A stretch of 64,000 nt of DNA from Chitinophagaceae bacterium (GTDB taxonomy: Bacteria > Bacteroidota > Bacteroidia > Chitinophagales > Chitinophagaceae), in the NCBI GenBank assembly GCA_019752045.1, contig JAIEMP010000003.1, positions 248,001-312,000 on the forward strand, given 5' to 3'. The notes under the pieces were generated by a model. That model was given only the letters and a program-made list of their open reading frames with translations, was not told where the DNA came from and searched no databases. The stretch's first letter is position 1. Each line of letters opens with the position of its first letter. Below are positions 33,000 through 40,878 of this stretch, piece by piece. The position numbers and the translations under genes were made by a program.

Positions 33000-33031
33000 G
33001 CCACTTTTTAAAATTAGACAGGGATTGACTT

Positions 33032-36000
33032 ATGAGTGTTAAATACAGAGAATTTTCGCAACTGAATTTACCTTCCATCGAGCAGGAGATATTGGCTAAA
33101 TGGGATGCTGAACAGGCATTTGAAAAAAGCATGGAGGTGCGTAATGGTGCAATGCCTTTTGTGTTTTACGAAGGCCCGCCCAGCGCTAATGGCATGCCCG
33201 GCATTCACCACGTTATTTCAAGAACCTTGAAAGATCTGGTTTGTCGCTACAAGACCATGAAAGGTTTCCAGGTAAAACGCAAAGGCGGTTGGGATACGCA
33301 CGGATTGCCAATTGAGTTAGGCGTGGAGAAAGAGTTGGGCATTACTAAAGAAGATATTGGTGTAAAGATTACCGTTGAAGAATACAATAAGAAGTGCCGG
33401 GAAGCGGTATTGCGTTATAAAGACAAGTGGGATGAGATCACGAAGAAGATGGGCTACTGGGTTGATTTGAATGATCCCTACATCACATTTGAAAACAGTT
33501 ACATTGAAACATTATGGTGGTTGCTGCAACAGTTGTACAAAAAAGGATTGTTGTATGAAAGTGTAAGTATTCAACCCTATTCACCTGCGGCTGGTACAGG
33601 TTTAAGCAGTCATGAGCTGAACCAACCCGGTACCTATAAAGATGTAAAGGATACCAGTGCAACGGTCATGTTCCGTGCAACACAAGATGAAAAAAGTAAA
33701 TTTTTGCATGATGCTGTGCATGGTGCAGAAGTGTTCTTCATGGCTTGGACAACAACACCATGGACCTTGCCAAGTAACCTCGGCTTAACAGTTGGACCAA
33801 ACATTGAATATGTGTTGGTTAAAGCATTCAATCCCTATACGCATCTATCTGTCAACCTAGTATTGGCGAAGGATCTTTTGTCTAAAAATTTTAATGAAGA
33901 GTATGTTATAAAGTCTCTTTTAGGAGGTCAGCACAAACTAAAGATAGATTTGTCGAGTGGTAGAAAAATAGAATTTGATGGCTTTGTGATTGAGGGAGAT
34001 AAAAAAATCCCAATCGAGGTTAAACACGGCGCAATAAAAAGGGAATCAATATCTCAGTTTGAGCATGAATTAAAATCATCAGAATTTGATAAAGGAATAT
34101 TCTTTTCGACTGAAGCTGTTTCCAAGAACCTTCAAAGCGAATATTCTAATATTGAATTCAGAACGTTTGAAGATTTTATTTTAAAATCATTCAAAGGTTC
34201 ACAATTGGAAGGTTTGCATTACGAGCAACTGTTGCCTTATGAAGCAAATAGTATTGAAGAGGTAAAACGCATTACACCGGATGCTGATCCATTCCGTGTA
34301 TTAATCGGTGATTTTGTTACAACAGAAGATGGTACAGGTATCGTTCATACCGCACCTGCGTTTGGTGCAGATGATTATCGTGTAGGTAAAAAATACAACA
34401 TTGGTATTTTAACCATGGTTGATCGTGAAGGAAAATTTGTAGATGGTTTGGGTGAGTTCAGTAACCGTTATGTAAAGAATTATAAAGACGATCAACATTA
34501 TGTAGATGTAAATGTTGACATCTGCGTAAAGCTGAAAAAAGAAAATAGAGCATTTAAAGTTGAAAAGTACGAACATAGTTATCCGCATTGCTGGCGAACG
34601 GATAAACCCATTCTCTATTATCCGTTAGATGCATGGTTCATTAAGACCACTGCTATCAAAGACAGGATGGTTGAGTTAAATAAAACCATCAACTGGAAAC
34701 CAAAGTCAACCGGCGAAGGTCGCTTTGGTAATTGGTTAGAGAATATGGTTGATTGGAATCTCAGCCGTTCCCGTTTCTGGGGAACAGCATTGCCCATTTG
34801 GAAAACAGAAGATGGGGAAGAAGAAATTTGTATTGGCACCATTGCTGAGTTGAAAGAAAATGCAGCTAAAGCAGATGCAATACTTGGCACAAACAATGCA
34901 AAATACACAGACAGTAATCTTGATTTACATAAGCCTTTCGTTGATGAGATCATTCTCATCAGCCCAACTGGCAAACCAATGAAACGTGTACCAGACTTAA
35001 TAGATGTTTGGTTCGATAGTGGTGCCATGCCGTATGCACAATGGGGATTACCGGATACAACTTCAAATAAATACGGCCCGTTAACTCCCGAGAATTTTTG
35101 GAAGTATCATGCTGCTGCAAAAGTCTCCCCTTCCGGGGTTCCTGATAAGGAACGAACGAAGTTCTTAGAAGGGGCTTTGTTTCCTGCTGATTTCATTGCA
35201 GAAGGTGTAGATCAAACACGTGGTTGGTTTTATACATTGCATGCAATTGCTTCACTTGTATATGATAGTGTTGCTTACAAAACGGTGGTGAGTAATGGTT
35301 TGGTGTTAGATAAGAATGGTAACAAAATGAGTAAGCGCCTCGGCAACGTGGTCAATCCGTTTGAAACCATCGAGAAGTTTGGTGCCGATGCTACACGCTG
35401 GTACCTCATCACCAATGCATCACCTTGGGATAATTTAAAATTTGATATTGAAGGCATCAAAGAAGTACAACGCAAATTCTTTGGTACACTTTATAATACC
35501 TATCAGTTCTTTGCTTTGTATGCAAACGTGGATGGGTTTGCTTTTAAAGAAGCAGCTATTCCCGTAAAAGAGCGACCTGAAATTGATCAATGGATATTAT
35601 CATCGCTTCACACACTCATCAAAAAAGTGACCGAAGCAATGGATGATTATGAACCAACACAGGCCGGTCGTTTAATTGAAGAATTTGTGGATGAACATTT
35701 GAGCAACTGGTATGTGCGATTGTGCCGTCGCCGTTTCTGGAAAGGTGAATACGAACAGGATAAGATCAGTGCGTATCAAACCTTGTACGAATGTTTAGAA
35801 ACTGTGTTGCGTTTAATGGCGCCTGTTTCTCCTTTCTTCAGCGACGCCATCTTTACTGAATTAAATAAAGTAAGTGGCCGATTTCCTGCCCACAGTAGCC
35901 TTGGCAAAGGTGGGAATGCTGCATCTGTTCATCATGCAGATTTTCCTGTTGCAAATGAATTGTTGATTGATGCTGCATTGGAAGAACGCATGCAACTGGC

Positions 36001-36721
36001 GCAGGATGCTTCTTCGCTGGTATTGTCGCTACGAAAAAAAGTAAACATCAAGGTTCGTCAGCCTTTGCAGAAAATATTGATCCCCGTGCTGAGTACTGGT
36101 ATGAAGGAGCAGTTCAGCAAAGTGGAAGACATTATTTTGAGCGAAGTGAATGTGAAGGAAATGGAGTACCTCAGTGCCGATAATACCTTCATCAAAAAGA
36201 AAATCAAACCCAACTTTATTGCTCTTGGTAAAAAGATGGGGGCCAGGATGAAAGCAGTATCGGCGGCACTGTCTCAGTTCAATCAGGAAGACATCAGCCA
36301 ATTTGAGCGTGAAACTGTTTATAATCTGTTGATAGAGAATGAAACTGTTCCATTATATTTGACAGATGTTGAAATTTTAAGCGAAGATGTGCCCGGTTGG
36401 ATGGTTGCCTCTAAGGGAGCCGTTACCGTCGCACTGGATGTAACCATCAGTCCCGAATTGCTGAACGAAGGAAATGCCCGGGAATTGGTGAACCGCATCC
36501 AGAAAATCCGCAAAGAGAGTGGTTTTGATCTGACTGACAGGATTACCGTGCTGGTATCGGATAACGAAAGCCTGCGTTCTTCCTTCACTCAATATAAATC
36601 CTATATTTGCGCCGAAATTTTGGCAGACAGCCTCGAAATGGTTCCGGAAATTACAGATGGAACAGAGATTGAGGTAAATGAAATCAACCTTACAGTTCAA
36701 GTACACAAAAAAGGAGGATAG
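33032..36721 (+). CDS. ileS: Isoleucine--tRNA ligase with a nuclease-like insertion in the editing region
   Basis: Charges tRNA-Ile; 1229 residues. Class I motifs: HIGH-like PGIHH (about 56-60) after YEGPPSANGM, KMSKR at 765-769, and the editing-domain pieces TTTPWTLPSNLGL (about 240-252) and GTGIVHTAPAFGADDY (about 434-449). The C-terminus has the DUF5915-type region (VNIKVRQPLQKILIPV). Between the two editing motifs, after LVLAKDLLSKNF and before FKGSQLEGLHYEQLLPY, about 99 foreign-looking residues (about 288-386) replace the usual short segment; they carry a PD-(D/E)XK nuclease signature. A second short insert (about 697-716, KVSPSGVPDKERTKFLEGAL) comes from a dispersed GC-rich repeat. All catalytic motifs are intact, so the enzyme is probably active. 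It overlaps no other gene and is followed by a DksA-like gene 1 nt later. Confidence 0.94.
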   Translation: MSVKYREFSQLNLPSIEQEILAKWDAEQAFEKSMEVRNGAMPFVFYEGPPSANGMPGIHHVISRTLKDLVCRYKTMKGFQVKRKGGWDTHGLPIELGVEKELGITKEDIGVKITVEEYNKKCREAVLRYKDKWDEITKKMGYWVDLNDPYITFENSYIETLWWLLQQLYKKGLLYESVSIQPYSPAAGTGLSSHELNQPGTYKDVKDTSATVMFRATQDEKSKFLHDAVHGAEVFFMAWTTTPWTLPSNLGLTVGPNIEYVLVKAFNPYTHLSVNLVLAKDLLSKNFNEEYVIKSLLGGQHKLKIDLSSGRKIEFDGFVIEGDKKIPIEVKHGAIKRESISQFEHELKSSEFDKGIFFSTEAVSKNLQSEYSNIEFRTFEDFILKSFKGSQLEGLHYEQLLPYEANSIEEVKRITPDADPFRVLIGDFVTTEDGTGIVHTAPAFGADDYRVGKKYNIGILTMVDREGKFVDGLGEFSNRYVKNYKDDQHYVDVNVDICVKLKKENRAFKVEKYEHSYPHCWRTDKPILYYPLDAWFIKTTAIKDRMVELNKTINWKPKSTGEGRFGNWLENMVDWNLSRSRFWGTALPIWKTEDGEEEICIGTIAELKENAAKADAILGTNNAKYTDSNLDLHKPFVDEIILISPTGKPMKRVPDLIDVWFDSGAMPYAQWGLPDTTSNKYGPLTPENFWKYHAAAKVSPSGVPDKERTKFLEGALFPADFIAEGVDQTRGWFYTLHAIASLVYDSVAYKTVVSNGLVLDKNGNKMSKRLGNVVNPFETIEKFGADATRWYLITNASPWDNLKFDIEGIKEVQRKFFGTLYNTYQFFALYANVDGFAFKEAAIPVKERPEIDQWILSSLHTLIKKVTEAMDDYEPTQAGRLIEEFVDEHLSNWYVRLCRRRFWKGEYEQDKISAYQTLYECLETVLRLMAPVSPFFSDAIFTELNKVSGRFPAHSSLGKGGNAASVHHADFPVANELLIDAALEERMQLAQDASSLVLSLRKKVNIKVRQPLQKILIPVLSTGMKEQFSKVEDIILSEVNVKEMEYLSADNTFIKKKIKPNFIALGKKMGARMKAVSAALSQFNQEDISQFERETVYNLLIENETVPLYLTDVEILSEDVPGWMVASKGAVTVALDVTISPELLNEGNARELVNRIQKIRKESGFDLTDRITVLVSDNESLRSSFTQYKSYICAEILADSLEMVPEITDGTEIEVNEINLTVQVHKKGG
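33893..34189 (+). other. PD-(D/E)XK (Mrr-like) domain inserted in IleRS
   Basis: Residues about 288-386 of IleRS. The order matches a restriction-endonuclease-like fold: a first helix (EEYVIKSLLGG), strand KLKIDL, then EFDGFVIEGDKKIPIEVKHG with Asp316 and Glu329-X-Lys331 as the putative metal-binding D...ExK, a helix (ESISQFEHELKSS), strand GIFFSTEAVS, helix, and strand IEFRTFEDFI. The DNA is visibly richer in A+T than the flanks and uses ATA, AGA and AGG codons rare in the rest of the gene, suggesting acquisition. No intein or stop signals are present; the reading frame is continuous. Confidence 0.6.
35123..35178 (+). repeat. GC-rich coding repeat (SPSGV type), copy in ileS
   Basis: Encodes VSPSGVPDKERTKFLEGAL just before the conserved FPADFIAEGVDQTRGWF. 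The DNA aligns with the hemF copy at 24027-24083 (GGGGTTCC, ACGAAGTTC and AAGGGG blocks). Confidence 0.65.
36714..36718 (+). promoter_or_regulatory. Shine-Dalgarno-like GGAGG before the DksA-like gene
   Basis: GGAGG, 4 nt before ATG 36723, embedded in the last ileS codons. Strong Shine-Dalgarno sequences are otherwise absent from this window. Confidence 0.45.
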
Positions 36722-36722
36722 A

Positions 36723-37568
36723 ATGGCAACAAAAAAGAAAGCAGCAAAGCCTGCTCCAAAGAAAGCGGCAAAACCGGCTGCAAAACCCGCCGCCAAAAAA
36801 CCGGCGAAACCAGCCCCGGCTGCTAAAAAGCCAGCTCCTAAACCTGCCAAGGCAGGGAAAGTGGTTGCAAAGCCAGTAGCAAAAAAGCCGGCAGCGAAGC
36901 CTGCTCCCGCAGCAAAGCCCGTTGCTAAAAGCCCGGCGCCCAAGCCTGTTGTTAAGAAACCAGAAGTTAAGAAATCTGTACCGGTAGTTGCCAAACCAGC
37001 CGCCAGTGCTATTAAGCCAACAGTTAAACAAGCAATCAAAGAATTGAAAAAAGAAGCTAAAAAGCCCGTTGTTGTGAAACCGGTGAAAACATCCGTCTCT
37101 ACCTCTGTCCGTTACCAGCCCGATTTTACAAAATCTGTACTGGATAAAGCAGTGGAAGAAAAACCGCAGGGTCCGATGGTTCGTTACAATGATGCTGATC
37201 TGGTAGAATTCAGGGAACTGATTCAACGTAAACTGGAATCGGCTAAAAAAGAACTGGGCTATTTGCAGGGACTCATTACCCGTAAAGATGAAATGGGTGG
37301 TGATGGTGATGATGGCCGTTACATGACCATGGAAGATGGAAGTGTAAGTATGGAACGTGAACAGTTGAGCCAGATGGCCAGCCGCCAGATCACCTACATT
37401 GATCACCTGGAAAAAGCCATGATGCGGATTGAAAATAAAACCTATGGTGTTTGCCGTGTAACCGGCAAACTCATTGATAAAGCCCGTTTACGTGCAGTAC
37501 CTCATGCTACTTTAAGCATGGAAGCAAAGATGGGTATTGTGAAGGGGCCGCAAATTTCAGGAGAATAA
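36723..37568 (+). CDS. DksA/TraR-like regulator with a histone H1-like Lys/Ala/Pro tail
   Basis: 281 residues in two parts. Residues 1 to about 110 are almost only Lys, Ala, Pro and Val in AKPAPKK / AKPAAKK-type repeats, like the tails of histone H1 and HU-type proteins. Residues about 155-281 are a DksA/TraR domain: a coiled-coil region (DLVEFRELIQRKLESAKKELGYLQGL ... REQLSQMASRQITYIDHLEKAMMRI) and the C-terminal YGVCRVTGKLIDKARLRAVPHATLSMEAK. Only one cysteine of the zinc finger remains, normal for Bacteroidota members. DksA-like proteins bind RNA polymerase's secondary channel; the tail may add DNA binding (inference). The ATG is 1 nt after the ileS stop and has GGAGG 4 nt upstream, so it is probably translated from the ileS transcript. 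Confidence 0.85.
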   Translation: MATKKKAAKPAPKKAAKPAAKPAAKKPAKPAPAAKKPAPKPAKAGKVVAKPVAKKPAAKPAPAAKPVAKSPAPKPVVKKPEVKKSVPVVAKPAASAIKPTVKQAIKELKKEAKKPVVVKPVKTSVSTSVRYQPDFTKSVLDKAVEEKPQGPMVRYNDADLVEFRELIQRKLESAKKELGYLQGLITRKDEMGGDGDDGRYMTMEDGSVSMEREQLSQMASRQITYIDHLEKAMMRIENKTYGVCRVTGKLIDKARLRAVPHATLSMEAKMGIVKGPQISGE

Positions 37569-40464: not shown

Positions 40465-40878
40465 TTAATAATCTCTGTTATAACCACCACCGTTGCCACC
40501 TTTGTAGCCGCCGCCGCCGCCACCTTTGTAGCCGCCACCGCCGCCACCTTTGTAGCCGCCGCCGCCACCACTTCCGCCACGGAAGCCGCCGCCGCCACCG
40601 CCGCCAAAGCTGCGTTTCTTAAATCCACCGTCGTCCTTTTTAGGCTGCGCTTCGTTCACCACAATCTTGCGTCCCTGAACGTCTGTATCGTTCAGCTGGC
40701 TGATTGCAGCTTGGGCTTCTTCTGCATTGTCCATTTCTACAAATGCAAAGCCTTTACTACGGCCTGAAAATTTGTCGGTTAAAATTTTGGCAGAGCTTAC
40801 AGCGCCAAATTGCTCAAACAGTGCAGCCAGGTCTTCGTTCGTCATAGACCATGACAGGTTTCCTACGTAAATGTTCAC
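40465..40878 (-). CDS. RNA-binding RRM protein with Gly-rich tail
   Basis: 137 residues from a GTG start at 40878. A single RRM: RNP2 IYVGNL at residues 3-8, RNP1 KGFAFVEM about 43-50. The tail (from about residue 90) is nearly pure Gly with KRSFGGGGG and three GGGGGYK repeats, ending YNRDY, as in eukaryote-like and cyanobacterial Rbp proteins used in RNA chaperoning and cold response. No ATG gives a sensible start: the frame extends upstream to 40947 but those residues are unlike any RRM protein. A leader of over 100 nt separates it from a near-consensus promoter, suggesting post-transcriptional control. Confidence 0.88.
   Translation of the reverse strand: MNIYVGNLSWSMTNEDLAALFEQFGAVSSAKILTDKFSGRSKGFAFVEMDNAEEAQAAISQLNDTDVQGRKIVVNEAQPKKDDGGFKKRSFGGGGGGGFRGGSGGGGGYKGGGGGGYKGGGGGGYKGGNGGGYNRDY
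40501..40572. repeat. 24-bp tandem repeat encoding the GGGGGYK units
   Basis: Three units beginning TTTGTAGCCGCC at 40501, 40525 and 40549 differ by single bases. The copy number is likely to vary between strains. Confidence 0.75.

What the first reader, a model, noticed from the sequence alone, without database searches (positions are those of the whole stretch)
33893..34189. A nuclease-like PD-(D/E)XK domain sits inside the editing region of isoleucyl-tRNA synthetase
About 99 residues replace the normal short segment between the two conserved halves of the IleRS editing domain. They show D316...E329-X-K331 in the context of strand and helix order typical of Mrr-type nucleases (DGFVIEG ... 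IPIEVKHG ... KGIFFSTE). The DNA differs from both flanks in base composition and codon choice (ATA, AGA, AGG), yet the frame is open and all aminoacylation motifs are intact. A nuclease-like module in a tRNA synthetase could cut tRNA or DNA, protect the gene like a homing element, alter editing, or be a harmless captured domain. I know of no described IleRS of this kind, but I could not search.
Basis: partly seen in the sequence, partly recalled or inferred. Interest (0 to 1): 0.9.

Follow-up and report, generated by a model that had tools for sequence, protein, structure and literature searches.

The report
Nuclease-fold domain inside isoleucyl-tRNA synthetase
In one bacterial species the only enzyme that loads isoleucine onto tRNA carries, in a loop of its proofreading domain, a recently acquired piece that looks like a DNA-cutting enzyme with its key residues intact; it is probably a tolerated passenger, but whether it cuts anything is simple to test.

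Summary
ileS (33032-36721) is one open frame of 1229 aa and the only gene over the ileS cut-off in its genome.

The nuclease-like reading is supported as homology and fold, not as function. The insert scores weakly but clearly against PD-(D/E)XK profiles (none of 20,000 shuffles reaches it) and keeps five conserved positions of the nearest family found, the C-terminal domain of DUF4143 ATPases. A model aided by those homologues (pLDDT 80.6) best matches a restriction endonuclease. No close relative of the insert was found in the collections searched.

New here: this loop varies in length across the family and takes other in-frame inserts, among them one palindrome shared by two genera. The same gene has two more species-specific segments, one a clean 30-bp insertion, one resembling ileS of other genera. 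I favour recent capture of a foreign domain into a permissive loop, carried as a passenger. An active nuclease is not excluded.

The parts
33032..36721 (+). ileS, isoleucyl-tRNA synthetase, 1229 aa, host of the insert and only gene of the genome over the ileS cut-off
   Evidence: (TIGR00392, 990 bits, cut-off 621)
33842..33892 (+). upstream shoulder: IleRS-like but divergent from same-genus relatives (nt identity 0.65 against 0.79 among the relatives); probably part of the exchanged tract
33893..34189 (+). inserted PD-(D/E)XK-like domain, residues 288-386, replacing about 26 aa of loop in the CP1 editing domain
33896..33898 (+). codon of E289, first-helix Glu conserved in the DUF4143-C set
   Evidence: column E6
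33971..33979 (+). codons of E314-F-D316 (second strand)
   Evidence: columns E31, D33
34016..34024 (+). codons of E329-V-K331, the E-x-K of the motif
   Evidence: columns E46, K48
34196..34360 (+). second half of the editing domain, again like the genus; includes DGTGIVHTAPAFGADD, invariant or nearly so in 46 sequences
35045..35191 (+). second species-specific segment (residues 672-720, 49 aa against 31 in the genus); resembles ileS of two other genera (L067, L012)
35885..35914 (+). third species-specific segment: clean 30-bp in-frame insertion (residues 952-961)

Best explanation
A foreign, AT-rich gene fragment encoding a complete small PD-(D/E)XK-type domain was exchanged, after this species split from its sister, into a surface loop of the CP1 editing domain of the only ileS gene. 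The loop lies between a helix and the strand leading to 'FKGSQLEG', and it is length-variable and already accepts inserts in related species. The frame, the catalytic motifs and the editing motifs are kept, so the enzyme most likely charges and edits as before with the extra domain hanging off the editing domain. The domain is most likely folded and its catalytic-type residues are intact because the event is recent; I take it to be a tolerated passenger without a selected role. Shown: frame, position, species-restriction in the sample, composition, motif, profile similarity, single-copy ileS, variable loop, two further insertions in the gene. Inferred: fold in context, recombination as the route, foreign origin, lack of function.
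For: Only ileS over cut-off in a 99.97% complete genome. Editing motifs intact and the surrounding editing domain models onto solved IleRS editing domains (1WNY chain A, TMt 0.83). Profile scores 17.9 bits (DUF4143-C) and 13.3 bits (Mrr) with 0 of 20,000 shuffles as high and best of 869 natural control segments 5.1 and 8.0. Five conserved positions kept. Model with homologues pLDDT 80.6, pTM 0.73, best PDB match EcoT38I, E 1.4e-4. Low GC. Loop length variation and other in-frame inserts. Two further species-specific segments in the same gene, one resembling other genera. No relative carrying the insert among 294 family, 395 phylum and 298 order genomes, sets that overlap.
Against: Sequence similarity is below Pfam's cut-offs, and one unrelated family (ADPrib_exo_Tox, E 0.007) scores nearly as well as the nuclease families. 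The insert taken without homologues did not fold confidently, and the good model used homologues picked for similarity, so it is partly circular. Codon usage is not extreme. No donor was found, and no sharp repeat or target-site duplication marks the junctions. The intact active-site residues would also fit a selected function. Lack of a role is inferred, not tested.
Confidence: 0.6

Rival explanations
1. The domain is an active or nucleic-acid-binding module with a selected role: it sits where the tRNA 3' end visits for editing and cuts or holds tRNA, or uses IleRS as a carrier for a defence-type nuclease.
For: E289, E314, D316, E329 and K331 are all kept. The best single library hit is a candidate defence model (PADLOC PDC-S01, E 3e-4 to 1e-3). 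Frame and fold are intact.
Against: Found in one species only, so no selection can be measured. Neighbouring genes tested are housekeeping. A freely active nuclease in an abundant essential enzyme would probably be costly. The same loop takes sequence without any domain in relatives.
Confidence: 0.17
2. A selfish, homing-like element: a nuclease domain that spreads into ileS alleles lacking it and is tolerated because it sits in a loop.
For: In-frame insertion of a nuclease-like domain in a conserved essential gene; signs of exchange between ileS lineages in the same gene.
Against: Single copy in one species; none in the family, order or phylum samples. No intron, no splicing-type ends seen by reading, and no Hint or intein family among the Pfam hits. 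I have no test of cleavage at the empty site.
Confidence: 0.05
3. Not a nuclease relative: an unrelated loop expansion whose resemblance to PD-(D/E)XK is convergence or chance.
For: Library scores are below the curated cut-offs and ADPrib_exo_Tox is nearly as good; NCBIfam finds nothing for the insert and PHROGs only E 0.18. The unaided model is poor. Other relatives have 15-40 aa expansions without any known domain.
Against: The two best Pfam hits are both restriction-endonuclease-like families. 0 of 20,000 shuffles and 0 of 869 natural controls reach either profile score. Five of five conserved positions are kept over a nearly full-length alignment.
Confidence: 0.13
4. Assembly chimera: two misjoined junctions placed a fragment of another organism's gene in ileS.
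For: Odd base composition, no relative with the insert, junctions not checkable with reads here; the genome is a 29-contig draft.
Against: Both junctions are in frame, no stop is introduced, the ORF keeps 1229 aa, and the fragment spans a whole domain, all of which a random chimera would rarely give. The gene lies inside a 522-kb contig. Two other loops of the gene also differ.
Confidence: 0.05

Closest known systems
C-terminal domain of AAA/DUF4143 ATPases (e.g. L032; probably also PADLOC PDC-S01)
   Same: E...ExD...ExK pattern and near full-length alignment; best real homologue found, 36% identity over residues 2-77 of the insert
   Different: There it is the tail of an ATPase; here no ATPase is attached and it is nested in IleRS. 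Pfam DUF4143 itself does not hit the insert
Mrr_cat (PF04471) restriction endonuclease domain
   Same: Best Pfam hit (E 0.0017), covers D...ExK and the following helix and strand
   Different: Below the family cut-off; less similar than the DUF4143-C set; stand-alone or fused to DNA-binding domains elsewhere (recalled)
NA-iREase1 (PF22722), NACHT-associated inactive restriction endonuclease
   Same: Second Pfam hit (E 0.0055); a precedent for a nuclease fold used without catalysis (family name)
   Different: Below cut-off; the insert keeps the acidic and lysine residues
IleRS with a GNAT domain (NCBIfam NF040702)
   Same: A catalogued IleRS variant with an extra enzyme domain (model name)
   Different: Different domain; this protein scores 315.7 against a cut-off of 1999
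Rickettsia palindromic elements and other in-frame mini-elements
   Same: In-frame inserts in conserved bacterial genes (passages of PMC10969869); the sister's palindromic insert in the same loop is of this sort
   Different: The nuclease-like insert is not repeated in the genome and has no inverted repeats of 12 nt or more

Membership tests
IleRS (TIGR00392) | Profile score over the curated cut-off | tested here: met
   990.3 bits against 621.4; only locus of the genome over the cut-off
IleRS (TIGR00392) | Class I signature motifs and editing motifs (motif names recalled) | tested here: met
   GIHHVISRTLKD and KMSKR read in the translation; WTTTPWTLPSN and DGTGIVHTAPAFGADD conserved with 45 relatives
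PD-(D/E)XK superfamily | D...E-x-K motif in the expected order of strands | tested here: met
   D316, E329, K331; strands at 317-321 and 324-331, helix 337-349 in the model numbering converted
PD-(D/E)XK superfamily | alpha-beta-beta-beta-alpha-beta core fold | tested here: met
   Model with 13 homologues, pLDDT 80.6; best PDB match EcoT38I E 1.4e-4, next ones Bax1, AF1548, Holliday resolvases, BamHI, but also RPB5 chains. Partly circular; unaided model uninformative
PD-(D/E)XK superfamily | Nuclease activity | not testable with these tools
   needs protein
Mrr_cat (PF04471) | Pfam gathering score 21 bits | tested here: not met
   18.9 bits for the insert alone, 14.8 in the whole protein
DUF4143 ATPases | DUF4143 / ATPase part present | tested here: not met
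   No DUF4143 or ATPase hit in the whole protein or the insert
NA-iREase1 (PF22722) | Pfam gathering score 27 bits | tested here: not met
   17.1 bits
Intein | Splicing (Hint) domain and ends | tested here: not met
   No such family among Pfam hits; ends lack Cys/Ser...His-Asn by reading (motifs recalled)
Self-splicing intron | Structured intron RNA | tested here: not met
   No Rfam match up to E 1 in 33000-36800
Palindromic mini-element | Repeated copies and inverted repeats | tested here: not met
   One copy in the genome at protein level; no inverted repeat of 12 nt or more in or around the insert

The most novel reading that the evidence does not exclude
A catalytically active PD-(D/E)XK nuclease has been nested in the tRNA-editing domain of the sole IleRS, where the editing-site geometry could bring tRNA 3' ends or nearby nucleic acid to it, making a synthetase that also cuts.
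Probability: 0.13. Interest if true: 0.85.

Novelty: new variant of a known kind. Interest (0 to 1): 0.5.

Why it matters
An essential, single-copy synthetase that took in a whole nuclease-like domain inside its proofreading domain is a natural domain-insertion experiment: it shows how permissive that loop is and offers an early stage of domain accretion caught before it spread. If the domain is active it would couple tRNA charging or editing to nucleic-acid cleavage, which I found described nowhere in the library searched. If it is inert it shows how variable synthetase loops collect foreign DNA, including repeats shared by different genera.

Tried and rejected
Close relatives of the insert: none in plasmids or phages, viral contigs (9 and 79 pattern matches, none confirmed) or GTDB contigs (76 pattern matches, none confirmed; 146 matches, 1 confirmed, the same DUF4143 gene as L032). 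These scans need short near-exact peptides, so distant relatives would be missed. In 395 phylum genomes 3 had a match at E 0.01 or better: the window, L032 and L033. I set L033 aside as chance because its alignment lacks the D...ExK residues. In 298 order genomes 7 matched at E 0.1 or better, the window and six weak ones. The four of these whose alignments I saw (L099, L100, L103, L104) do not keep the motif; L101 and L102 scored lower, and the printout was cut.

Donor in the same genome: the one other Mrr_cat gene (L096, ATP-cone-like protein by reading) is not similar.

Intein, intron and repeat explanations: see the membership table. Two imperfect direct repeats flank the insert at a distance (18 nt at 33684/34529 and 16 nt at 33714/34356); I regard them as chance. 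RNA folding of the second segment was unremarkable (z -1.45).

Structure without homologues failed for the insert. PDB sequence searches gave 0 hits. VIA alignment was not available.

Recombination at the upstream shoulder: other genera match 31 residues at up to 23, and no same-genus locus is among the 14 best shown; suggestive only.

Literature: searches are listings only; none listed by title or abstract start describes a nuclease domain in an IleRS. Only passages of PMC10969869 were read. The library lacks most subscription journals.

Full report
What is there. The ORF at 33032-36721 codes for an IleRS of 1229 aa (TIGR00392 990 bits) and is the only locus of the genome over the ileS cut-off (genome 4.16 Mb, 29 contigs, 99.97% complete). 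The gene lies inside a 522-kb contig among housekeeping genes: of ten window ORFs scanned, hits include glutamyl-tRNA reductase, ferrochelatase, a radical SAM protein, a DksA/TraR zinc finger, an ABC transporter and ribonucleotide reductase. No tRNA or Rfam family was found in the window.

The insert. Residues 288-386 have no counterpart in relatives. Six of seven same-genus relatives compared in detail have the short loop '...HKY(L/V)K.EGENGDFEGYNGEQK.LPWKII...SFKG'; the seventh, the sister L003, has that loop plus 15 aa. Between fixed anchors the window has 133 aa, the common length is 60 and the next longest measured is 101 (77 loci measured, 17 not). In one search, on a slightly different stretch, the window has 200 aa and the next longest 162 (68 distinct segments; 18 loci gave none by my pattern, two of them not IleRS). 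Family-wide, 376 of 394 genomes matched a native-loop query. I followed up 30 genomes with split or weak matches (29 gave a match) and did not measure the loop in every one of the 376; the rows listed with full-length matches span 132-149 codons, so carry no insert of this size.

Composition and frame. GC 0.316 against 0.416, GC3 0.263 against 0.398; no 99-codon window in the rest of the gene (0 of 1031) or in other ORFs (0 of 405) is as low in GC, although 15 of 405 are as low in GC3, and codon usage as a whole is not extreme (89 of 405). Only 1 of 20,000 base shuffles stays open.

Is it a nuclease relative? The Pfam hits for the insert are Mrr_cat (E 0.0017), NA-iREase1 (0.0055) and, against the reading, ADPrib_exo_Tox (0.0073), all below cut-off. 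PADLOC gives PDC-S01 (E 0.001; 3e-4 with flanks) over model positions 339-418 of 439, the place where the DUF4143 ATPase L032 also matches; that PDC-S01 is such an ATPase is my inference. NCBIfam gives nothing for the insert alone (SfsA at E 0.1 with flanks), PHROGs only E 0.18, and AbiEi is weak (E 0.018 with flanks). L032 is 36% identical over residues 2-77 (E 3e-4 per genome) and carries Pfam DUF4143. Profiles from 13 DUF4143-C and 31 Mrr sequences score the insert 17.9 and 13.3 bits; 0 of 20,000 shuffles reach either, and the best of 869 natural control segments reach 5.1 and 8.0. The insert keeps E289, E314, D316, E329 and K331, the columns that are invariant or nearly so in that alignment of 14, the insert included.

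Structure. With IleRS relatives only, the editing domain models well and matches solved IleRS editing domains, but the insert is low-confidence (block means about 34-61). With the 13 DUF4143-C rows the insert gives pLDDT 80.6, pTM 0.73 and the order helix-strand-strand-strand-helix-strand-helix-strand-helix. One PDB match has E below 0.001, EcoT38I with DNA; the next ones include Bax1, AF1548, Holliday resolvases, BamHI, Nt.BspD6I and Can2, and also RPB5 chains of RNA polymerases (recalled to share this fold in structural classifications). As homologues were supplied, this is partly circular.

The gene as a patchwork. Against the seven relatives, the tract from about 33842 to 34195 is divergent and the sequence returns to the genus type at 34196. 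Two other segments are specific to this species. Residues 672-720 (49 aa) differ from the 31-aa type in the same-genus loci that my pattern extracted and resemble L067 and L012 of two other genera ('GLPD.SS.KFG.L..ENFFKYHA'; DNA). Residues 952-961 are a clean 30-bp insertion absent from L003. In the sister G012 the CP1 loop holds a 21-nt palindrome that is also in the ileS loop of G753, another genus, letter for letter; each of these two genomes has five copies at up to 2 mismatches, G000 none, and the reversed-pattern control none.

Reading. The loop collects foreign or repeated DNA in frame in several lineages, and here it took in a whole domain. Because ileS is single-copy and its motifs are intact, charging must still work (inference). 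One species gives no measure of selection, so I commit to a passenger domain as most likely (0.6) and keep an active or binding nuclease as the main rival (0.17). Homing has no positive evidence beyond position.

Novelty. I found no described IleRS with a nuclease-like domain in the listings (title and abstract starts; two of them empty). NCBIfam holds an IleRS variant with a GNAT domain (model name), so IleRS with added domains is a known kind; this is a new variant of it.

Noticed in passing
L003 about 1555-1600 (G012:C4:124373-124393) and G753:C4:34146-34166: The same 21-nt palindromic sequence sits in frame in the ileS CP1 loop of two different genera and occurs elsewhere in both genomes (five places each at up to 2 mismatches); a repeat family that enters this loop.
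   Followed up: partly
window 35045-35191: Second species-specific loop of IleRS, resembling other genera (L067, L012) rather than its own genus; contains a GC-rich palindrome-like stretch near 35127-35141.
   Followed up: partly
window 35885-35914: Clean 30-bp in-frame insertion in ileS relative to the sister species, with short self-complementary ends by eye (CCCAC/GTGGG).
   Followed up: partly
L010, L011, L013 and L071-L075, L078, L087: A distinct CP1 loop type of roughly 50-60 aa ('HKYFPEHLDEW.EG...') shared by part of the genus and by other genera, suggesting exchange of loops between ileS lineages.
   Followed up: no
window 36678-37568: DksA/TraR-type zinc-finger protein with a long Lys/Ala/Pro-rich low-complexity N-terminal part, directly after ileS.
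   Followed up: no
window 40495-40606: GC-rich 24/30/48-nt tandem repeat.
   Followed up: no
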